Assembly: GCF_003984645.1 (NCBI RefSeq)
Contig: NZ_RWKI01000012.1
Span: 1-64,000 of the forward strand
Direction: 5' to 3'
Origin: Variovorax sp. MHTC-1
GTDB lineage: Bacteria; Pseudomonadota; Gammaproteobacteria; Burkholderiales; Burkholderiaceae_C
Length of the DNA: 64,000 nucleotides
A model generated the notes under the pieces. That model searched no databases and had not been told where the DNA came from. It saw only the letters and a list, made by a program, of their open reading frames with translations. This document shows positions 961 to 8,361 of this stretch, one piece after another (position 1 is the first letter of the stretch; the number at the start of each line of letters is the position of its first letter). Made by a program: the position numbers and the translations under genes.

Positions 961-1503
961 ATGCTTCATCCCGCCCATGCGTTCCGCCTTCATGAGGCAG
1001 CTGCATTGAGCGGATTCAGCAAGTACATGCTGGACTACTTGGCCCGAGAAGATGTCTTCCGTCCCGAGGCAGGCGTTGGCGGCCGAGGTGTCGCGCGCAG
1101 GTACAGCTTTGCAGACATAGTGGTGCTGCGCGCGCTCCGGCAGATCTGCAAGGATCGCGGACGAATCAGGCACTTGCGGGTCGCTCTGAGCACCTTTCGG
1201 GACGAGTTCGGGCCGATCGAGGTGGGCCAACGCATCGACCAGCTGCTGTTTGTCCAGGGGGGCGAGCTTTGCTTGCGGACGGCCGAGCAGGCAGACTGCG
1301 AGCTTCGCACCGGCCAGTTGGCCTTTTCGTTCGTCGTAGACTTGGATCGGCTGACCCAAGAGGTCTCCGCGAGTCTGATCGTCGATAGCAAGAACAACGT
1401 CGTGCGTCTGGAGCCTAGCAAGGCGAAAGAGGCGGAGGCCATTCGACAGAAGGTGTGGGCCGCCGTGCGACAAAAGAGAGAACAGCGTCGAGGCGCCGCA
1501 TGA
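961..1503 (+). CDS. MerR-like helix-turn-helix transcriptional regulator
   Basis: This is a 180-residue protein. The N-terminal ~70 residues (FRLHEAAALSGFSKYMLDYL through RRYSFADIVVLRAL) resemble a MerR-type winged helix: a recognition helix followed by the R-Y-(S/T)-x-x-(D/E) wing and a dimerisation helix. The C-terminal half is not a recognisable effector domain and ends in a basic helix. The ATG at 961 has no Shine-Dalgarno in front, so the transcript may be near-leaderless. It lies 155 bases upstream of the three-gene operon that begins at 1658, in the same direction, and is a candidate regulator of it. The ligand is unknown. Confidence 0.65.
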   Translation: MLHPAHAFRLHEAAALSGFSKYMLDYLAREDVFRPEAGVGGRGVARRYSFADIVVLRALRQICKDRGRIRHLRVALSTFRDEFGPIEVGQRIDQLLFVQGGELCLRTAEQADCELRTGQLAFSFVVDLDRLTQEVSASLIVDSKNNVVRLEPSKAKEAEAIRQKVWAAVRQKREQRRGAA

Positions 1504-1614
1504 GCACTGCGGATTAGTGTGGCGCTCGGTTTGCCGACTGTCGTATCCTCTGCAGTCCTATGGGCAGGAGCACGGACGTGACTAGGAATTTTGGTGTATT
1601 TTTTACGCCGGCAC

Positions 1615-1637
1615 GCGACAGCGGCGCCCGCTGTCGT
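1615..1637. promoter_or_regulatory. Strong hairpin/palindrome before the three-gene operon
   Basis: CGACAGCGG (1616-1624), a CGC loop and CCGCTGTCG (1628-1636) form a perfect 9-base-pair stem ending 21 bases before the ATG at 1658. It lies in the 154-base gap after the MerR-like gene. No U-run follows, so a simple intrinsic terminator is unlikely. It may be an operator or a leader structure limiting translation of the 1658 gene. Confidence 0.4.
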
Positions 1638-1657
1638 CCTGACTTGAGGGGTCTGCC

Positions 1658-2098
1658 ATGAGCATCATTTCGCTTCTTCCAGGTGACGACAGTGACATGC
1701 TTTGCAAACGCTACGCCTCGGACGTCTCTCGATATTTCTCCGAACCCGGTGGCGCTCGCGTAACCCTGGCCCAGGTACCTCTGGAGAACGTTTTCCGTGT
1801 TCTTGAGATGTACCGGTACGACGCCTTCGCAGATGAACATCGCAAGGGGGTGCTCGCCCTTGAAACCGGTGAGCCGGAGTACTTGCATGCTGGGGGCTTC
1901 AAGGACTGGTACGTGAACATCCAAGATGCCCTTGAGCGGGCCAAGGCGGAGGTGTTTGGCTCGGTCGACAAGGAGCAGGTAGTCACGACGCTGCAAGATT
2001 CATTGCGGCAGCTGGTTGCTGGCAAGCTGGATACTGCCATTGCCAATCAGTGCCAACTTTTTTTCCGCCGCTTCTCGGAACAGCTCCCCGCAAGGTGA
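1658..2098 (+). CDS. Hypothetical protein, first gene of a three-gene operon
   Basis: This is a 146-residue soluble protein with no recognised domain. It starts MSIISLLPGDDSDML and is predicted to be largely helical, with no membrane segment or signal peptide. GAGGGG about 10 bases upstream of the ATG is a plausible ribosome site. Its TGA (2096-2098) overlaps the ATG of the metalloprotein gene at 2098, indicating translational coupling. Constant association with the HExxH protein and the dCTP-deaminase-like protein would suggest a partner or sensor role, but nothing in the sequence says what it does. Confidence 0.65.
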   Translation: MSIISLLPGDDSDMLCKRYASDVSRYFSEPGGARVTLAQVPLENVFRVLEMYRYDAFADEHRKGVLALETGEPEYLHAGGFKDWYVNIQDALERAKAEVFGSVDKEQVVTTLQDSLRQLVAGKLDTAIANQCQLFFRRFSEQLPAR

Positions 2099-3408
2099 TG
2101 CTCTCACCCAAGGCCTTCCTGCTCCAGGAATGCGCCAACGTACGTGATGTTCTCGACGAGACGCTCAGGTACAAGTACGGCGCAGACGGCAGCAAAGATT
2201 TTTACGACGAGTGCCTCATCCGGCTCGAATCCACCGAGGCCGGCATCAAAGGCTGCGAAGAGGGCGATCACAGTCAGCTCACTGCCTTCTCCAAGTTGCT
2301 GCAGCGTCTGACATATCTCATCGCGCGAATCGAACGCTCATCTATCGGAGAGTACTCGTGGCCATTCGTCGAAGAGTTGAAGGATCTGGCAGCTGGCATC
2401 TGTTCTGAAGCGACACTGGCCGACGATTCCACGCCGCCCCAGATTCATGTCCTGTCGCAGGGCGAGTTTGGCTATTCGATTGATCCAGAGCAAAGCCGCC
2501 CTTCGGCAAGTCGGCGCAAAATTCTGACAATCGTGCTCCCGCGGACGCTGAAGCACTTCGTGCTGCTACACGCGATCCTGGGGCACGAGATCGGCCACGC
2601 GATCTACGCGAATGCGAAACACCAACGACATCTAAAGCACGTGCGTCGCACCCATCTTGGGAAGACGGGCAATGTTCTCGAGTCCTCGGCCACAACCGCC
2701 GCCCGAATGTTCGACAAAGATGCCCCCTTCCTCGTCAAGCAGCACTTGATTAGTCGGAGCATGCGACAAGAGGCCGATCTTTACCGCTTTTCAGACTGGG
2801 ACGCGTGGGTCGAGGAGGTCCTGTGCGATCTCATCGGGTTGGTGAGCTTCGGTCCAAGTTATGTCGCCGCAGCCTGGCACCTGCTCCTTGCGATGGATCC
2901 AACCGGATTGCGCTGGGGCCCAGACCACCCCCCGATCGCGTGGCGTCTCAACATGTTGCTGGACGGCGCTTCGATTCTTGGAATGGACACGGTGTCCAGC
3001 GGTGACCCAGGAACAGATGCGGCAGCGAAGAGCTTCTGGGACGCAATTCGAAACAAGAGGTACGCCGACCCTTGGTGCGACATCATTGATCGAGCATCTC
3101 TAACGGACGCCTTGAATGAAATTAAGGCGCTCCTCGATGTGCATCCGCCAGCGGCTTACCCATCGAATCCAGATCGGCTCCTACCCGGTCTGCTCAATGA
3201 CCTGGGGCATCTGGTGCCTCCCGCGGGCTTCGCTGTGGAGCAGGATGATTCATTGACGCTCGAGCAGATCGATTTTCGGCACATCCTCTATGCCGGTTGG
3301 ATTCATGGGCACTCTACGGACATCGATCAGAAGACACTGAATCGACTGTGTGAACATGCCATCATGCAACAGCGGGCCATCAAGAAGTTCCAGGGCACTA
3401 CCGCATGA
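2098..3408 (+). CDS. HExxH zinc-metalloprotease-like protein
   Basis: I chose ATG 2098 because it overlaps the previous stop (TGATG); an in-frame start at 2050 would overlap that gene by 49 bases. The 436-residue protein has a helical N-terminal region and then a canonical zincin helix, LLHAILGHEIGHAIYA, with His163, Glu164 and His167. About 70 residues later comes an acidic motif, WVEEVLCDLIGL, that could supply the third zinc ligand (Glu239 or Glu240) and a supporting Asp244. There is no signal peptide, so it probably acts in the cytoplasm. It is not closely like M48, FtsH or ImmA. The substrate is unknown; neighbours 1658 and 3405 are the obvious candidates. Confidence 0.7.
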   Translation: MLSPKAFLLQECANVRDVLDETLRYKYGADGSKDFYDECLIRLESTEAGIKGCEEGDHSQLTAFSKLLQRLTYLIARIERSSIGEYSWPFVEELKDLAAGICSEATLADDSTPPQIHVLSQGEFGYSIDPEQSRPSASRRKILTIVLPRTLKHFVLLHAILGHEIGHAIYANAKHQRHLKHVRRTHLGKTGNVLESSATTAARMFDKDAPFLVKQHLISRSMRQEADLYRFSDWDAWVEEVLCDLIGLVSFGPSYVAAAWHLLLAMDPTGLRWGPDHPPIAWRLNMLLDGASILGMDTVSSGDPGTDAAAKSFWDAIRNKRYADPWCDIIDRASLTDALNEIKALLDVHPPAAYPSNPDRLLPGLLNDLGHLVPPAGFAVEQDDSLTLEQIDFRHILYAGWIHGHSTDIDQKTLNRLCEHAIMQQRAIKKFQGTTA

Positions 3409-4043
3409 CCGCGCTGTCGAGAAGTTCGATTCTGGCGCGCATGAAATCGCGCGAACTCTTCATCTCGCCGATCCTCGGCACTGACCAGCTAGGAATGTCA
3501 TCTGTCGACTTGCGCATGGGGACCGTCGCCCTCGTGGCTCGCGCAGGTGCCCAGTCGCACGTTGATCCAAACGCCTATGCGAACGCTCCTATGCAAGCCC
3601 ATGGGGCGATGGAGGGCAAGAAGCAAAAGCACGAGCGCTTCGACATCCCTTTCGGGGAGTCCTTTCTACTCCATCCTGGGTCACTCGCCTTGGTTCCCAC
3701 GCTTGAATGGGTGCTACTGCCTGGGGATCTGCAAGGTGTGGTGACGGCTCGTTCATCTTGGGCGCGGGAAGGGCTGAACATCGCCACCGCCACCATCGTC
3801 AATCCAGGCTACACGGGCATCGTCACGCTTGAACTGGCCAACTTCGGCCAGATCCCGATCAAGCTCTATCCGGGCCTGCGACTTGCGCAGATCGCGTTCT
3901 ACGATCTTCACCGTGCGGACCCAGCGCGTGACGACGAACACCTGAAGAAACAGGGGCAATTCCAGATGGCCTTTGAGCCTTCAGCCGGAGACATTGCGAA
4001 GAAGGACGAAGCGTTCTTGAGCAAAGGGCCCGGACGCACTTGA
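3405..4043 (+). CDS. dCTP deaminase/dUTPase-superfamily protein
   Basis: The ATG at 3405 overlaps the preceding TGA by four bases (ATGA). The 212-residue protein has the trimeric dCTP deaminase/dUTPase fold signatures: a V-x-A-R-S-S-W-A-R-E-G-L block near residue 110, then N-P-G-Y-T-G-I-V-T-L-E-L-A-N near 130-143, which carries the catalytic Glu position of dCTP deaminases, and the P-G-x-R-L-A-Q-I motif. Housekeeping Dcd is about 190 residues and is usually not in such an operon. dCTP deaminases are established anti-phage effectors that deplete dCTP, so a defence role is plausible here. It could instead be a nucleotide-binding regulator or a house-cleaning enzyme. Confidence 0.75.
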   Translation: MTALSRSSILARMKSRELFISPILGTDQLGMSSVDLRMGTVALVARAGAQSHVDPNAYANAPMQAHGAMEGKKQKHERFDIPFGESFLLHPGSLALVPTLEWVLLPGDLQGVVTARSSWAREGLNIATATIVNPGYTGIVTLELANFGQIPIKLYPGLRLAQIAFYDLHRADPARDDEHLKKQGQFQMAFEPSAGDIAKKDEAFLSKGPGRT

Positions 4044-4050
4044 ACGCAGG

Positions 4051-4088
4051 TTGAATCTCCGCTATTCTGCGGATTAACGTAGATTCAA
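4051..4088. promoter_or_regulatory. Operator-like region in front of the XRE gene
   Basis: A perfect 8-base inverted repeat, TTGAATCT (4051-4058) and AGATTCAA (4081-4088), flanks the site TCCGCTATTCTGCGGAT (4058-4074). That site recurs with 13 of 17 matches at 5179-5195, before the Ubl operon. It ends just before the ATG at 4092. It is likely the binding site and promoter of the XRE regulator (inference from position and recurrence). Confidence 0.5.
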
Positions 4089-4091
4089 TGC

Positions 4092-4409
4092 ATGACCGAA
4101 GGCAAGACACTGGGCAAGGTCATTTCCGAAGCGCGAAAGGCCAAGGGAATGAACCAAAAGGAACTCGCGGCGTCTGTACGCCGCGAAGACGGCGAGTCAA
4201 TTTCGCCTCAATATCTCAACGACCTTGAGCATGATCGCCGGGTGCCTTCCTCGGAGATCGCGCTGCAACTAGCTAGCGTGCTGGGCCTGCATCCGGATTA
4301 CCTGCTCTACTTGGCGCGCAAATGGCCTGACGACCTGACTGACAGAGGGCTGCAACCGGAGCAATTCGAGAAGGCCATGATGGCCTTCCGAAAACAGCTG
4401 TCCCGTTAG
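4092..4409 (+). CDS. XRE-family helix-turn-helix repressor
   Basis: This is a 105-residue Cro/C1-type protein. The HTH spans about residues 7-62 (LGKVISEARKAKGMNQKELA through PQYLNDLEHDRRVPSSEIAL), followed by a short acidic tail that may dimerise. No Shine-Dalgarno precedes the ATG; an operator-like palindrome abuts it, which fits autoregulation. The next gene, nine bases downstream, is an ImmA/IrrE-type protease. Such pairs are known to work as a repressor plus a protease that cleaves it on a damage or phage signal. It probably controls its own gene and, through the second site at 5179-5195, the ubiquitin-like operon. Confidence 0.8.
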   Translation: MTEGKTLGKVISEARKAKGMNQKELAASVRREDGESISPQYLNDLEHDRRVPSSEIALQLASVLGLHPDYLLYLARKWPDDLTDRGLQPEQFEKAMMAFRKQLSR

Positions 4410-4418
4410 GAGCCAGCC

Positions 4419-5129
4419 GTGCGGATGATTCTAGATGTCACCAGAAGGCTTCCCGAGCGACCGCACTACACGCAGGAAGAGTTGGACGAAATCTCCGAGT
4501 ACGCGGTGACAAGCTATCTCACCGAAAAGCACGGAAATGCGCTGTTCCCAATCTGCACAGATGATCTAGCGTCGTTGATCGAGGTGCACGCGGAGGACCT
4601 CGACCTCTACGCCGATCTTTCACAACTAGGGTCCGACGTAGAGGGCGTGACTCTTTTCAATCCGGACGGCAAGCCCAGCATCCGCATCGCTGCCAGGTTA
4701 TCGGAGGCCAAGCGAGAAAATAGATTGCGCACGACGCTTGCGCACGAGCTTGGACACGCGCTGCTGCACAACATCCTGTTTGAGCGCTGTACGGGGCCTG
4801 GTCTCTTCGACGATGAAGAAGTTCAGACGGACCGCGTTCAGGCTTGCAGGGAAGGAAACATGCTCAATGCTGGTCAATCCGACTGGATGGAGTGGCAAGC
4901 GGGCTACGTGTCGGGCGCAATCCTAATGCCGGCCACGCAAGTGCGTCTGGTCATCGCTCATCGATTTCCCAACTACATCCGTGGCGGCCTTGCCGCCTGT
5001 GGCGATCTCTTTGAAGCCATGGTGGGAGAAGTGCAGTCCGCCTTCCAAGTCTCCTCTGAAGCCGCCCGCATCCGTCTGCTGAAGCTGCAAGTAGTTCGCG
5101 ATGCCGGGCTGACCTCCACCCTGTTCTAA
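4419..5129 (+). CDS. ImmA/IrrE-family metallo-endopeptidase
   Basis: This is a 236-residue protein with the zinc motif RTTLAHELGHALLH (HELGH near residues 109-113). About 40 residues later comes WMEWQAGYVSGAILMP, the E-W-x-A segment of ImmA/IrrE proteins that provides the third ligand. I chose the GTG at 4419 because AGGAG lies 6 bases upstream; the ATG at 4425 would also work. It follows the XRE gene by nine bases. In this family the protease cleaves the partner XRE repressor and so derepresses nearby genes. Here the likely outcome is induction of the Ubl operon that starts at 5295. The C-terminal ~70 residues may sense the trigger. Confidence 0.8.
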   Translation: MRMILDVTRRLPERPHYTQEELDEISEYAVTSYLTEKHGNALFPICTDDLASLIEVHAEDLDLYADLSQLGSDVEGVTLFNPDGKPSIRIAARLSEAKRENRLRTTLAHELGHALLHNILFERCTGPGLFDDEEVQTDRVQACREGNMLNAGQSDWMEWQAGYVSGAILMPATQVRLVIAHRFPNYIRGGLAACGDLFEAMVGEVQSAFQVSSEAARIRLLKLQVVRDAGLTSTLF

Positions 5130-5294: not shown

Positions 5295-5981
5295 ATGAAA
5301 ACGCAACACGGCAGTCAAGATGGTGATGAACAGCGCATCGTGATCCTGGACGAAGCGCTCCAGGAACGCACCGTCGACATGAACGACCCGAAGGTAAACG
5401 CCACGCAACTGGCGGCAGCCGCAGGCTACCGGTCTGCCGACGAGGTAATCGTGCTCCAGCGCCTCAAGAGCGGGAACCTTGAAGAGATCAGGCCCGACGA
5501 GGTCGTCGACCTGCGCGAAGCGGGTGTCGAACGGTTCTACGTGATCGAGAGCGACGCGACCTACCGGTTCATCCTGGATGGCATGAAGATCGAGTGGCCG
5601 AAGGCCAAGGTCAATGCAGCACTGCTGCGCCACCTCACCGGCGTGGACGAGGACTTCGACGTCATCCTGGAGCTGGAAGAGAGCCCTGATCGCGTTCTGG
5701 ACGATGACGATGTCGTCGATCTCTCAGGCAAGGGCACTGAGCGTTTCCGTACCAAGCGTGCGCCAAAAACTGTCACGGTCTACTACGGCGAAGTGCCCTA
5801 CGAGATGCCGCGCGGCGTCTATACGACCGAACAGCTCAAGACGAAGTTCCAAGTCGAACAGGGCTATGTGCTGGCGGTATTCGAGGGCGATCGCCTGGTT
5901 CCCCTGAAGCCCGACCAGCGCGTGCGCCTGAAGAACGACATGCGCTTCACCTCCCACGCCCCCTGCGGCCAGTCGTCGTGA
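5295..5981 (+). CDS. Multiubiquitin protein: three tandem ubiquitin-like (beta-grasp) domains
   Basis: The start at 5295 is supported by AAGGAG six bases upstream; the frame is open to 5151 but that extension has no such site. The 228-residue protein shows three repeats of about 70 residues, each a beta-grasp pattern: residues ~14-80 (RIVILDEALQERTV...), ~82-150 (TYRFILDGMKIEWP...) and ~153-222 (KTVTVYYGEVPYEM...). This matches the Multiubiquitin family. The C-terminus is ...APCGQSS, so there is no terminal Gly-Gly; Gly225 followed by three residues is the only candidate conjugation end after trimming by the JAB peptidase two genes downstream (inference). It is the modifier of the operon. Confidence 0.85.
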   Translation: MKTQHGSQDGDEQRIVILDEALQERTVDMNDPKVNATQLAAAAGYRSADEVIVLQRLKSGNLEEIRPDEVVDLREAGVERFYVIESDATYRFILDGMKIEWPKAKVNAALLRHLTGVDEDFDVILELEESPDRVLDDDDVVDLSGKGTERFRTKRAPKTVTVYYGEVPYEMPRGVYTTEQLKTKFQVEQGYVLAVFEGDRLVPLKPDQRVRLKNDMRFTSHAPCGQSS

Positions 5982-6307
5982 GCGCTCACAAGTTCGAGGC
6001 GCTCAAGCAGTACTACCCCGCGGCACAGGCGGTCCACGAGGGGGGGGTGCTGTGCGCCTTCCTCCCCGCGCTGAGGATCGACACGCCGGCGGGGATCGTA
6101 CAACTCGACGCCCTGCTCTACCCTGCGCACCACGCGGGTTACGAATCCCGCCTGTTCCTGGAACGGCAGATCAGCGCCCTCAACGCCAAGAACTGGAACG
6201 CCTTCCAGTTGATCGGGCGCAACTGGCAGGCCTGCTCCTGGCAGGGAGTGTCGGCCGCACTGCCCTGGCATCAGATGCTTGCCAACCACTTGAGGGCCTT
6301 CGCATGA
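5978..6307 (+). CDS. E2-like ubiquitin-conjugating protein (bacterial E2 family)
   Basis: The GTG at 5978 overlaps the Ubl stop (GTGA). At 109 residues it is a minimal E2 fold, shorter than the ~150-residue eukaryotic UBC domain. The beta-sheet core (VLCAFLPALRIDTPAGIVQL, DALLYPAHHAGY) and C-terminal helices fit the prokaryotic E2 families that travel with Multiubiquitin proteins. The best candidate active-site Cys is Cys86 in NWQACSWQG; Cys26 is the only other. It would take activated Ubl from the E1-like protein and transfer it to targets. No E3 is visible in the operon. Confidence 0.75.
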   Translation: MSAHKFEALKQYYPAAQAVHEGGVLCAFLPALRIDTPAGIVQLDALLYPAHHAGYESRLFLERQISALNAKNWNAFQLIGRNWQACSWQGVSAALPWHQMLANHLRAFA

Positions 6308-6810
6308 ACATCAGGGTCAAAATCCTGTCGTCCCTGCTGCGGGATATCCGCGCCGATCTGCATCGACACCACCCATTCGCCTATGAGCGTGTCGGCTTCA
6401 TCAACGCCGGTGCGACTTGGATGGGTGACGATCTCATGCTGGTCGCCCGTAACTACCAGCCAGTAGCAGACGACGACTATGAGCGCAGCATGGCGGTGGG
6501 CGCACAAATCGGCCCCGACGCCATTCGCAAGGCACTCGAGGCAGCCTACAAGCACAAGTCCTGCATCCTGCACGTCCACACGCACGGCGGATGGAGCCGT
6601 CCCGAGTTCTCGGCCACCGACCTGAAAAGCGCTGCCAGCTTCGTGCCGGGTTTCTTCAACGCTTTGCCTGGAATGCCGCACGGGATCATCGTCCTCAGCA
6701 ACGACAGCGCCCGCGGACTGATGTGGACCGCGCCAAAGATCCGCCCCACTTACGTTGCTGGATTCGTGGAAATCGGCGCGCAATTTCAACGGATTGGAGA
6801 AGCAGCATGA
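6304..6810 (+). CDS. JAB/MPN-domain metalloprotease (deubiquitinase-like)
   Basis: The ATG at 6304 overlaps the E2 stop (ATGA). The 168-residue protein is a single JAB domain with the JAMM elements: Glu28 in YERVGF, the His cluster LHVHTH (His90, His92, His94), then Ser103 and Asp106 in EFSATD. The His-to-Ser spacing is one residue longer than the usual H-x-H-x7-S-x2-D if His92/His94 are the ligands. It probably trims the ...CGQSS tail of the Ubl precursor and/or removes Ubl from targets. It should be cytoplasmic, as no signal peptide is seen. Confidence 0.85.
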   Translation: MNIRVKILSSLLRDIRADLHRHHPFAYERVGFINAGATWMGDDLMLVARNYQPVADDDYERSMAVGAQIGPDAIRKALEAAYKHKSCILHVHTHGGWSRPEFSATDLKSAASFVPGFFNALPGMPHGIIVLSNDSARGLMWTAPKIRPTYVAGFVEIGAQFQRIGEAA

Positions 6811-7718
6811 GCAAGAGCGCCCGCCAGAGCTTCCTCGGCGCAGACAGCACGCGCGTATTGGCTGAGGCCCGTGTGGGTATCGTGGGCCTGGGCGGCGGCG
6901 GCTCACACGTCGCCCAGCAGCTCGCCCATGTCGGCATCGGCAACTACGTCCTGGTTGACCCCGATGTCATCGAGGAGTCGAACCTCAACCGCCTGGTCGG
7001 CGCGACGACCGCCGACGTGGAGCAACGCGCGAGAAAAGTCGATATCGCCAGTCGCGTCATTCGCGGGGTGCTCCCGGAATCCAACATCATCGCAGCGTTC
7101 GCGAACTGGCAAGACGCGGCCGGCCATTTGAAGTCGTGCGACCTCATCGTGGGCGGACTCGACTCGGTCCGGGCGAAGGACGAGCTAGATCGCTACTGCC
7201 GAAGGTACCTCATCCCCTACGTAGACATGGGTATGGACGTGCACAAGGTCGGAGACCACTTCCTGATCGCGGGACAAGTCGTTCTGGTAACGCCTGGCGC
7301 ACCGTGCCTGCGTTGCCTAAGCGTTGTCACCGATGACGCGCTGGAGCAGGAAGCACGCAAGTACGGTGCCGCAGGAAGCAAGCCTCAAGTCGTATGGCCC
7401 AATGGCGTGCTCGCCGCTGCCGCGGTTGGCCTCGTGATCCAACAGATCTGCCCCTGGCACGCCACCGCCCCTGCCGGCGCATACCTCGAATACGACGGCA
7501 ATAAGCACACGATCGTCCCGCATCAAGGCCATACGGTGTTGTTGCAACGTCGCTGCTCGCACTTCTTTGCCGAAGAGGCGGGAGACGCCATATTCGACAT
7601 CAGACGACCGCCCTCCAGGCATGCCGAGATGGAGCGACGCCCCGCCCCTTGGCAAAGGCTGTTGCTCGCCCTGCGAAAGGGGCTCCGATCGATACTCGCG
7701 GGGTCATTGGCGCATTGA
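6807..7718 (+). CDS. E1-like ThiF-family adenylyltransferase
   Basis: The ATG at 6807 overlaps the JAB stop (ATGA). The 303-residue protein is a ThiF/E1 Rossmann domain. It has the ATP loop VGLGGGGSH (residues 26-34), Asp51/Asp53 and the NLNRL motif (59-63), R-x-x-R-K around 74-77 and Asp119 in GGLDS. Cys167 and Cys170 (PCLRC) are at the position of the MoeB-type cysteine motif and are candidates for zinc binding or thioester formation. The C-terminal ~60 residues are basic and poorly conserved in appearance. It would adenylate the Ubl C-terminus and pass it to the E2-like protein. Confidence 0.85.
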   Translation: MSKSARQSFLGADSTRVLAEARVGIVGLGGGGSHVAQQLAHVGIGNYVLVDPDVIEESNLNRLVGATTADVEQRARKVDIASRVIRGVLPESNIIAAFANWQDAAGHLKSCDLIVGGLDSVRAKDELDRYCRRYLIPYVDMGMDVHKVGDHFLIAGQVVLVTPGAPCLRCLSVVTDDALEQEARKYGAAGSKPQVVWPNGVLAAAAVGLVIQQICPWHATAPAGAYLEYDGNKHTIVPHQGHTVLLQRRCSHFFAEEAGDAIFDIRRPPSRHAEMERRPAPWQRLLLALRKGLRSILAGSLAH

Positions 7719-7965
7719 GCCAGGAAAGTCCTCGCGTTCGGCCCACCTGCATCGACGTGTACGCGGAAGTTCGCCAAGACTTCGGCAATCTCGTCGTTGC
7801 CCAAGCGGGCGATAGCGGAAAAGATCCGCGTTCCACGAACTGTGGCGCGCAGATGGGAAATTGTCATGAATCTTGACCTTATCTCAGTAGTGGACCGCAC
7901 CGTAGTTGGCGCCTAACTTGTTGCTCCACAACAAAACCACCGATCAGTAAATGTGGCGCACCACA
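7719..7965. other. Right end of the genomic island (junction with comM)
   Basis: This is non-coding sequence between the E1-like gene and the surviving comM part. It contains a TTGTTG-N5-CAACAA hairpin (7918-7934) that could end the Ubl operon transcript. It also has an imperfect palindrome around GGCGCC (7907-7912) and the subterminal repeats listed separately. Read inward from the comM side, the island starts TGTGGTGCGCC, which fits the 5'-TGT ends of Tn7-like and related transposons. The junction at 7965/7966 is deduced from where comM homology begins. An antisense frame (7867 down into the E1 gene) has no supporting features. Confidence 0.55.
7884..7962 (+). repeat. Two imperfect subterminal direct repeats at the island end
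   Basis: TCAGTA-GTGGAC-CGCACC (7884-7901) and TCAGTAAATGTGG-CGCACC (7944-7962) share both outer hexamers and the TGG core, 60 bases apart. The second abuts the comM junction. Repeats in this arrangement are typical binding sites for a DDE transposase at Tn7-like or Tn5053-like ends. The pattern is seen in the sequence; the role is inferred. Confidence 0.45.
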
Positions 7966-8361
7966 CAGGGCAAGCTGAGCGGCCCGCTGCTCGACCGCAT
8001 CGATCTGCACATCGAGGTGCCTGCAGTCTCGGCTGTGCAGCTGCTCGAAGCGCCGGCCGGCGAAGCCACCGGCAGCATCCGCGGGCGCGTGGTCGAGGCG
8101 CGTGGACGCGCGATGGAGCGCCAAGGCAAACCGAACCAGGCTTTGCAGGGTGCCGAGATCGACCGGCATGCCGCGCTCGATGCGGCGGCGCTCAAGTTCA
8201 TGCACAGCGCGGCGGCGCGGCTGGGCTGGTCGGCGCGCAGCACGCACCGTGCGCTGAAGGTCGCCCGCACGATCGCCGACCTGGCCGGCGCCGGCGACGT
8301 GCAGGTCCCGCATGTGGCGGAGGCGGTGCAGTACCGCCGGGCCTTGCGCGCGGACACCTAG
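7966..8361 (+). pseudogene. comM: comM (YifB family Mg-chelatase-like AAA+ ATPase), 3' remnant
   Basis: From QGKLSGPLLDRIDLHIEVP onward the frame matches the last ~130 residues of ComM/YifB (family ~500 residues), including the arginine-finger-side DRIDLHIE motif and the C-terminal helices GWSARSTHRALKVARTIADL and HVAEAVQYRR. The upstream ~370 residues are replaced by the island, so an ORF from ATG 7951 adds only five foreign residues. ComM is a hexameric helicase that promotes branch migration in natural transformation; this copy cannot have ATPase activity. Its TAG overlaps the convergent stop of the next gene in a shared CTAG. Confidence 0.85.

What the first reader, a model, noticed from the sequence alone, without database searches (positions are those of the whole stretch)
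5295..7718. Complete bacterial ubiquitin-like conjugation operon on an island
Four genes overlap by four bases each (GTGA, ATGA, ATGA): a three-domain ubiquitin-like precursor, an E2-like protein, a JAB peptidase and an E1-like protein. Related operons (Bil type: Ubl, E2, E1, JAB) are established anti-phage systems that modify phage structural proteins. This one differs: the modifier has three Ubl domains, there is no terminal Gly-Gly (C-terminus APCGQSS), and the E2 is only 109 residues. The tail may be trimmed to Gly225 by the JAB protein. If the protein acts as a pre-joined tri-Ubl, conjugation would add a short chain in one step.
Basis: partly seen in the sequence, partly recalled or inferred. 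Interest (0 to 1): 0.85.

Follow-up and report, generated by a model that had tools for sequence, protein, structure and literature searches.

The report
Ubiquitin-like operon without evident catalytic cysteines
This is an intact four-gene bacterial kit for attaching a ubiquitin-like tag, a relative of the known polyUbl/Bub operons, whose activating and carrier proteins show no conserved catalytic cysteine but do share other invariant residues, so it may attach its tag by unusual, testable chemistry.

Summary
In detail: 5295-7718 holds four intact genes overlapping by 4 bp: three-domain Ubl, 109-aa E2-like, JAB and E1-like. The Bil reading is not supported; the operon belongs with polyUbl operons (type 6e, Iyer 2006), whose solved relatives are called Bub. 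By profile the E1's best solved relative is Citrobacter BubCD, the E2 model's best match is BubB (Z 9.4), and the Ubl matches multi-ubiquitin proteins. All four genes occur in 82 of 85 non-redundant loci. Across these, the E2-like protein has no conserved cysteine but invariant Ser87 and His104; the E1 keeps adenylation and zinc residues, with no conserved cysteine in the expected catalytic region; the JAB keeps its metalloprotease residues; 80 of 83 Ubls end exactly in Gly-x-[SA]-[SA], so JAB trimming to Gly225 is likely. The third Ubl domain is the constant one: 23 of 83 match it alone, 16 being too short for another. CapH/CapP-like regulators lie beside it and the island splits comM. Best reading: a stress-inducible Ubl-conjugation operon with E1 adenylation and a non-thioester, possibly Ser87-linked, E2 step. 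Chemistry and anti-phage function are inferred. New variant of a known kind.

The parts
5295..5981 (+). three-domain Ubl (polyUbl/BubA-like), 228 aa; domains about 11-88, 89-159, 160-227; C-terminus APCGQSS, predicted JAB cut after Gly225
   Evidence: PF14452 E=2.4e-32; model pLDDT 92.8; domains 1-2 match 8u38/9d5b/9d59 at Z 20-21, whole protein matches 9cd2/9d5a at Z 18-19; G225 and S227 invariant in 13 of 13
5978..6307 (+). E2-like (UEV/UBC-type fold) protein, 109 aa, invariant W73, W83, S87, H104, no conserved Cys
   Evidence: A5, 74 of 74 rows; model pLDDT 96.2; best VIA match 9eae_C BubB Z 9.4; no Pfam hit in 12 of 12
6304..6810 (+). JAB/JAMM metalloprotease, 168 aa; E28, H92, H94, S103, D106
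   Evidence: Prok-JAB 18.1 bits, sub-threshold; residues kept in 82-84 of 84
6807..7718 (+). E1-like ThiF-type adenylating enzyme, 303 aa; zinc-type residues C167, C170, C250, H252
   Evidence: PF00899 E=3.6e-34; profile finds Citrobacter BubCD E=1.6e-21; conservation
4092..4409 (+). HTH repressor, CapH-like (105 aa)
   Evidence: HTH_3 E=1.2e-12; PADLOC HTH_VI 8.9e-09, capH 7.3e-07
4419..5129 (+). ImmA/IrrE-type protease, CapP-like (236 aa)
   Evidence: Peptidase_M78 1.3e-08; PADLOC capP 7.2e-13; kindred protein 5' of the same operon in L128 (4.9e-47)
4051..4088 (.). inverted repeat upstream of the HTH gene, candidate operator
   Evidence: 17-nt arms, 82% complementary, 4-nt gap; not compared with chance
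7951..8361 (+). 3' fragment of comM, right edge of the island
   Evidence: Mg_chelatase_C E=6.5e-29 and the last positions of PF01078; 5' part on contig C40

Best explanation
A mobile, probably DNA-damage-inducible, polyUbl/Bub-type protein-conjugation operon of a 'split' four-gene variety. Inferred cycle: (1) the HTH/ImmA pair keeps the operon off until stress; (2) the JAB removes the conserved three-residue tail (Gln-Ser-Ser), exposing Gly225; (3) the E1-like enzyme adenylates that Gly with ATP, as MoeB does for MoaD (established for that pair); (4) lacking a conserved Cys in the expected place, it passes the Ubl without a thioester to the E2-like protein, most likely to invariant Ser87 with His104 as helper; (5) the Ubl is joined to target proteins and the JAB reverses it; (6) Ubl domains 1-2 are an optional, filament-type oligomerisation module and domain 3 is the reactive Ubl. 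Shown by sequence or model: the genes, folds, invariant residues, lack of conserved cysteines at those places, constant third domain, neighbouring regulators. Inferred: tail cleavage, adenylation, the Ser87 step, conjugation, regulation, and defence as the purpose.
For: All four genes in 90 of 93 loci, 82 of 85 without duplicates. 4-bp overlaps: E2/JAB 77 of 81, Ubl/E2 66 of 81, JAB/E1 54 of 82 (L041 and L047 left out there). E2 invariants W73, W83, S87, H104 in 74 of 74 rows and 84 of 84 (numbered one lower there). Profile comparison pairs S87 with the invariant Ser of BubB-type domains (P 4.7e-05, probability 68). E2 model nearest BubB, Z 9.4, next rows about 7. E1: D51, R62, K77, D119 in 83-84 of 84; C167/C170/C250/H252 in 83 of 84. 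JAB E28, H92, H94, S103, D106 in 82-84 of 84. Gly-x-[SA]-[SA]-end in 80 of 83 Ubls; best model stretch starts in domain 1 in 57, in domain 3 in 23, between in 3. Domains 1-2 match multi-ubiquitin entries, two titled filaments, Z 20-21. Upstream neighbours: Peptidase_M78 and PADLOC capP in 39 of 139 proteins each, capH in 30. CapH+CapP as DNA-damage switches: PMC13373217 (passages).
Against: No activity was tested. Ser87 could be structural: Trp73, Trp83 and His104 are equally invariant, and I had no coordinates to measure a Ser87-His104 distance. The window's own E2 has Cys86 beside Ser87; Cys stands there in 12 of 84, so a Cys route in a minority is not excluded. In the E1, C111 is Cys in 77 of 84 and C131 in 47 of 84; I take both as part of the adenylation domain, which is not shown. 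The 80 genome loci were found through E1 patterns (PQV[VI]W[PS]NG or IPY[IV]D[MIQ]GM), which biases E1 conservation. As a single sequence the E1 matches the tRNA dehydratase TcdA as well as BubCD (1.4e-13 each). The hhalign probability is 68; Foldseek found no E2 match at E<=0.001 and put BubB at rank 12, E 0.56. JAB scores below Pfam's cut-off, and 2 of 10 members, the window included, match Prok-JAB at E<=0.01. capP/capH are not the only PADLOC families hit; RmrA and HTH_VI models hit similar numbers. Defence is inferred from neighbours only.
Confidence: 0.5

Rival explanations
1. Conjugation without E2 catalysis: the E1-like enzyme adenylates Gly225 and a target lysine (or other nucleophile) attacks the adenylate; the E2-like protein is an inactive UEV/RWD-type adaptor that binds the Ubl or the target.
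For: Iyer 2006 called the 6e E2-like domain catalytically inactive because it lacks the Cys (PMC1779556, section 14). UEV domains, also inactive E2 folds (recalled), are the next-best fold matches, Z about 7.
Against: Ser87 and His104 are invariant in 74 of 74 rows, more than an adaptor would seem to need, and the Ser pairs with the invariant Ser of BubB-type domains.
Confidence: 0.27
2. Sulphur-carrier pathway: the JAB trims the Ubl, the MoeB-like E1 adenylates it and a thiocarboxylate is made for a biosynthetic reaction.
For: The E1 has the zinc-bearing ThiF/MoeB form without a conserved Cys in the expected region; the one listed match for domain 3 alone is a MoaD, Z 7.7; sulphur-metabolism operons with Ubl, JAB and E1 exist (rows 4a-4e, PMC1779556).
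Against: No rhodanese or sulphur-metabolism family among the ten window proteins scanned or the 25 listed of 34 families hit by 139 upstream neighbours (downstream neighbours were not scanned); an E2-fold gene is present in 84 of 85 loci; regulators are CapH/CapP-like.
Confidence: 0.1
3. Bil-type anti-phage system: E1 and E2 thioesters, modification of phage structural proteins.
For: Same four kinds of gene as Bil; JAB processing of the Ubl is also a Bil step (PMC11354881, passages). One solved chain named Ubl-BilA (8u38) matches domains 1-2.
Against: No conserved Cys in the E2; one 303-aa ThiF-type E1; by profile and fold the closest solved E1 and E2 relatives are Bub proteins.
Confidence: 0.06
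4. Stress-response rather than anti-phage operon: the same chemistry, aimed at host proteins after DNA damage. (This concerns purpose and can hold together with any of the chemistries above.)
For: PMC13373217 says Bub operons are not yet shown to defend and may mediate more global stress responses (passages); CapH/CapP-like neighbours.
Against: Location on a comM-splitting island and, in relatives, on plasmids is typical of defence and other mobile cargo, though not proof.
Confidence: 0.3

Closest known systems
polyUbl operons, type 6e (Iyer, Burroughs and Aravind 2006, PMC1779556: section 14, part 2 of section 25 and search passages read)
   Same: one to three Ubl domains; E2/RWD-like protein without Cys, sometimes a separate gene between the polyUbl and JAB/E1 genes; JAB and E1; a third, C-terminal Ubl-like domain with ThiS/MoaD as best threading hits in a subset; Mesorhizobium mlr6139 named as a three-repeat protein
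   Different: JAB and E1 are separate genes here (in most 6e cases fused); the Gly-x-Ser-Ser end and the invariant Ser/His of the E2 are not mentioned in the parts I read
Bub (BubA, BubB, BubCD; PDB 9ea4, 9ea5, 9ea8, 9eae, 9eav; Ye et al. NSMB 2026, not held: only titles and citations seen)
   Same: E1 profile's best solved relative (1.6e-21); E2 model nearest BubB (Z 9.4); Multi_ubiq modifier; association with CapW or CapH+CapP reported for 219 of 544 Bub operons (PMC13373217, passages)
   Different: compared with the Citrobacter braakii operon L049: four separate genes, no DUF6527 gene next to the E1, E2 not covered by Prok-E2_E, CxxC...CxH kept in the E1, and the Ubl ends in a three-residue tail instead of continuing into an E2 domain
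Multi-ubiquitin proteins (PDB 9d59, 9d5a, 9d5b, 8u38, 9cd2; Gong et al. 2025, not held: titles only)
   Same: domains 1-2 superpose at Z 20-21, rmsd 1.5-2.2 over 145-148 residues; the whole three-domain protein matches 9cd2 (Z 19.1, rmsd 4.8, 209 residues) and 9d5a (Z 18.2, rmsd 5.5, 207 residues)
   Different: BLAST-type similarity to these entries ends near residue 155-175, and Citrobacter BubA 155-229 alone fits our second domain best (Z 10.2), so how our third domain relates to theirs is open
Bil (BilABCD)
   Same: gene set of Ubl, E2, JAB, E1; JAB processes the Ubl
   Different: Bil E2 has Cys138 in a CEHH motif and its E1 a Cys domain with Cys417 (PMC11354881, passages); no counterpart is conserved here

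Membership tests
polyUbl operon type 6e (Iyer 2006) | protein with one to three tandem Ubl domains | tested here: met
polyUbl operon type 6e (Iyer 2006) | E2/RWD-like fold without the catalytic Cys, fused to the polyUbl or a separate gene between polyUbl and JAB/E1 | tested here: met
   fold; no conserved Cys; gene order
polyUbl operon type 6e (Iyer 2006) | JAB fused to, or encoded next to, the E1 | tested here: met
   adjacent with 4-bp overlap; one open frame in 2 of 85 loci, L126 and L130
polyUbl operon type 6e (Iyer 2006) | companion zinc-binding protein Y (not in every operon; I take DUF6527 of L049 to be it, which is my inference) | tested here: not met
   not among the ten window proteins scanned; the comM fragment is the next annotated gene after the E1
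Bub (BubA/BubB/BubCD) | E1 homologous to BubCD | tested here: met
   best solved relative by profile, E=1.6e-21; tied with TcdA by single sequence
Bub (BubA/BubB/BubCD) | JAB-E1 fusion (BubCD) | tested here: not met
   two genes in the window
Bub (BubA/BubB/BubCD) | E2 of Prok-E2_E (PF14462) | tested here: not met
   no Pfam hit in 12 of 12 members; both fused BubB-type domains tried do hit it, while the separate small protein of L050 does not
Bub (BubA/BubB/BubCD) | BubB fold | tested here: met
   VIA Z 9.4, rmsd 3.3, 106 residues, ahead of the next rows at about 7; Foldseek alone not significant
Bub (BubA/BubB/BubCD) | covalent Ubl conjugation | not testable with these tools
   needs biochemistry
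Bil (BilABCD) | E2 with catalytic Cys (CEHH motif) | tested here: not met
   no conserved Cys in 84 sequences; motif from PMC11354881
Bil (BilABCD) | E1 with inactive plus active adenylation domains and a Cys domain | tested here: not met
   303 aa with one ThiF stretch; Cys columns in at least 10 of 84 are C167, C170, C250, C111 (77), C131 (47), G117 (29), L171 (20), G29 (10)
JAMM metalloproteases | Glu, His-x-His, Ser-x-x-Asp motif | tested here: met
   E28, H92, H94, S103, D106; eight residues between His94 and Ser103, one more than the motif in the abstract start of PMC300881 (search listing)
CapH/CapP regulators | HTH repressor plus ImmA/IrrE-type protease beside an immune operon | tested here: inconclusive
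   PADLOC capH 7.3e-07 and capP 7.2e-13; HTH_VI scores better for the HTH and RmrA models are also hit; ssDNA activation and cleavage not testable

The most novel reading that the evidence does not exclude
A ubiquitin-like conjugation cascade without any catalytic cysteine: a MoeB-like zinc E1 makes the Ubl adenylate and hands it to an E2-fold enzyme that works through a Ser/His pair as an oxyester; the conserved Gly-x-Ser-Ser end is a safety cap that only the operon's JAB removes; the reactive unit is the third, perhaps MoaD-like, Ubl domain, to which a filament-forming double-Ubl module is attached in most lineages so that modified targets are drawn into polymers. It would be a living intermediate between MoaD/MoeB chemistry and ubiquitin-type conjugation. 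(Lowered from 0.3 to 0.27 on checking, because two three-domain multi-ubiquitin structures also match the whole protein and leave the type of domain 3 open.)
Probability: 0.27. Interest if true: 0.75.

Novelty: new variant of a known kind. Interest (0 to 1): 0.5.

Why it matters
Textbook ubiquitin chemistry runs through cysteine thioesters. A family found in several bacterial phyla that keeps E1, an E2 fold, JAB and Ubl, yet shows an invariant Ser and His and no conserved Cys in the E2, makes the question 'can Ubl conjugation run without thioesters, and how did it arise from MoaD/MoeB-type activation?' directly testable with four small proteins. The nearly invariant Gly-x-Ser-Ser end gives a simple processing assay, and the variable number of Ubl domains separates the constant domain from the accessory ones.

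Tried and rejected
Bil membership: rejected on the E2 and E1 cysteine tests. 'Pre-joined ubiquitin chain': weakened, because 23 of 83 relatives match only domain 3; 16 of these frames have at most 126 aa, while 7 (148-252 aa) could hold further domains that the profile misses (lengths, classes). Degenerate or broken operon: rejected; all four frames are open and the motifs kept. Cys86 of the E2 as catalytic residue: unlikely; Cys in only 12 of 84 at that column. An exact E1 'catalytic Cys column' was tried against the genome's own MoeB-like protein, but the loop alignment is ambiguous, so I claim only that no Cys column between C170 and C250 is conserved (the highest is 171, 20 of 84).

Led nowhere: the E2 protein as query in genome contigs found no relative among 121 pattern matches; the A1 profile found the E2 in 2 of 398 phylum genomes, the own genome included, the other weak and with a stop inside, and in 5 of 399 family genomes, the own included; viral contigs gave one E1 relative, matched over residues 19-103 only; JAB and E2 have no solved relative by sequence; Foldseek on the E2 model had nothing at E<=0.001; the third-domain profile found no credible solved relative, and 6 of 16 members match Multi_ubiq at E<=0.1, none an NCBIfam model. 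Full texts of Ye 2026, Gong 2025, Chambers 2024 and Hor 2024 are not held. I recall, unverified, that the Ye work reports oxyester-type intermediates for Bub; if so, the Ser idea extends a known result to this branch. A search for the domain names found 2 papers, neither opened. The downstream-gene alignment A10 was made but not scanned.

Rows dropped: 8 of 93 loci as duplicates of an E1 stretch, leaving 85; of 140 upstream proteins picked, one of 1,027 aa was left out, 139 scanned; the search for related loci kept 80 of 151 relatives; of 57 'full' Ubl loci 56 are in the tree, because L039 has no E1; L041 and L047 were left out of the overlap count.
Full report
Observation. The four ORFs at 5295-5981, 5978-6307, 6304-6810 and 6807-7718 are open and overlap by four bases each. 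Pfam gives Multi_ubiq (2.4e-32) and ThiF (3.6e-34); the JAB scores below its cut-off (18.1 of 25 bits) and the E2-like protein has no match.

Relatives. Plasmid searches found E2 relatives in 10 records and Ubl relatives in 152. An E1 profile (A2) fetched the best 80 of 151 relative loci from genome contigs. With 13 loci from earlier steps, the window included, 93 were surveyed with profiles of the four proteins: 90 carry all four. The other three are L039 (Ubl and E2, at the end of a plasmid record), L115 (JAB and E1) and L116 (E2, JAB and E1). Eight are duplicates by E1 sequence, so 82 of 85 non-redundant loci carry all four. Record titles include Alpha-, Beta- and Gammaproteobacteria, Verrucomicrobia, Acidobacteria, Bacteroidota and Nitrospira. 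The patterns used to fetch them lie in the E1 and bias its conservation, but not that of the other three proteins directly.

E2-like protein. In 74 of 74 rows W73, W83, S87 and H104 are invariant; in the larger set the same columns are 84 of 84 and no column is mostly Cys (highest 39 of 84; the window's Cys86 is Cys in 12 of 84; that script numbers residues one lower). The model (pLDDT 96.2) is best matched by Citrobacter BubB, Z 9.4 over 106 residues, then TSG101 UEV, Atg3 and E2 enzymes at Z about 6-7. The tool warns that best Z values of 7-8 are common, so the BubB match stands out only moderately, and Foldseek alone was not significant (BubB rank 12, E 0.56). Profile comparison with six fused BubB-type domains, two of which were checked and hit Prok-E2_E, aligns S87 with their invariant Ser (probability 68, P 4.7e-05). 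So the E2-like filing rests on fold plus operon position, and the catalytic reading of Ser87/His104 is inference.

E1. D51, R62, K77 and D119 are kept in 83-84 of 84, and C167, C170, C250 and H252 (zinc-type) in 83 of 84. Other Cys columns with at least 10 rows are C111 (77), C131 (47), G117 (29), L171 (20) and G29 (10). No column between 172 and 249 reaches 10, and that is where MoeB/ThiF-type enzymes carry their Cys (by recall; the own-genome MoeB-like protein has one after its CxxC). The best solved relative by profile is Citrobacter BubCD; by single sequence TcdA and BubCD are level.

JAB. E28, H92, H94, S103 and D106 are kept in 82-84 of 84, so an active JAMM protease is predicted.

Ubl. 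The model shows three beta-grasp domains (pLDDT 92.8, pTM 0.78). Domains 1-2 match multi-ubiquitin proteins, two of the entries titled filaments, at Z 20-21. The whole protein also matches the three-domain entries 9cd2 and 9d5a at Z 19.1 and 18.2 with rmsd near 5. Citrobacter BubA 155-229 alone fits domain 2 (Z 10.2), and the one listed match for domain 3 alone is a MoaD, 5mpo_B, at only Z 7.7. Whether domain 3 is MoaD-like or of the multi-ubiquitin type is therefore open. In 80 of 83 relatives the protein ends exactly in Gly-x-[SA]-[SA]; exceptions are L103, L133 and L131. The best profile stretch starts in domain 1 in 57, in domain 3 in 23 and between in 3. Of the 23, 16 are frames of at most 126 aa and 7 are longer. 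On a quick E1 tree with 31 weak forks the single/multi states need 4 changes, so accessory domains were gained or lost a few times. The fused Citrobacter precursor continues from its Ubl part through a Gly into the E2 domain; the split operon instead has a short, conserved tail. Both fit JAB release of a Gly end, which is inferred.

Context. Upstream in the window lie a CapH-like HTH and a CapP-like ImmA/IrrE gene. Among 139 upstream neighbours of relatives, up to two per locus, 39 match Peptidase_M78, 39 capP and 30 capH; RmrA models hit similar numbers. PMC13373217 (passages) reports that 219 of 544 Bub operons are associated with CapW or CapH+CapP, and that Bub operons are not yet shown to protect against phage. 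The operon lies between two parts of comM: the 3' part at 7951 in the window and the 5' part near the end of contig C40.

Comparison. Iyer et al. 2006 described this kind as row 6e, with tandem Ubl domains, an E2/RWD-like domain lacking Cys, JAB and E1, and in a subset a third Ubl with ThiS/MoaD as best threading hits (passages). The solved Bub proteins are its closest known relatives for E1 and E2. Two Bub traits tested are not met (JAB-E1 fusion, Prok-E2_E), so I call this a variant in the 6e/Bub group and not a member of the BubA/BubB/BubCD set. Bil is excluded on the E2 and E1 cysteine features.

Verdict. Real, conserved and mostly anticipated in kind. New here, as far as the held texts and libraries show (paper searches), are the split four-gene architecture as a multi-phylum family, an E2-like family without a Pfam hit in the 12 members scanned or an NCBIfam hit in the window's member, its invariant Ser/His with no conserved Cys, and the Gly-x-Ser-Ser end. 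The key papers on Bub (Ye 2026, Gong 2025) could not be read and may hold some of this.

Noticed in passing
window 961-4043; L040:2518-5125: A cassette MerR regulator, small protein, HExxH-containing protein, dCTP-deaminase-like protein lies upstream of the operon; MerR (32% identity) and Dcd (30%) genes recur in the same order upstream of the L040 operon, with a barely similar HExxH protein and an unrelated small protein between. The window's HExxH protein was found in no other of 399 family genomes. Possibly a separate defence module.
   Followed up: partly
window 7951-8361 and G000 contig C40 near 88604: comM is split by the island; positions 100-176 of the Mg_chelatase profile are covered by neither part, and the middle of the island is not assembled.
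   Followed up: partly
L032, L033, L069, L072, L080, L083, L084, L087, L089, L098: In 10 of 85 loci an AAA ATPase and a subtilisin-family peptidase follow the E1: a possible effector pair of a sub-branch.
   Followed up: partly
upstream of relatives, e.g. L034 and L037: Some operons have an Xre/MbcA antitoxin and RES-domain toxin pair upstream (Pfam: 7 and 3 of 139 proteins; annotated).
   Followed up: no
window 4051-4088: Inverted repeat (17-nt arms, 82% complementary) between the dCTP deaminase-like and HTH genes, a candidate operator.
   Followed up: no
L126 and L130: JAB and E1 are in one open frame in these two members, linking the split operons to the fused BubCD form.
   Followed up: no
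L103, L131, L133: The only three of 83 Ubls that do not end exactly in Gly-x-[SA]-[SA].
   Followed up: no
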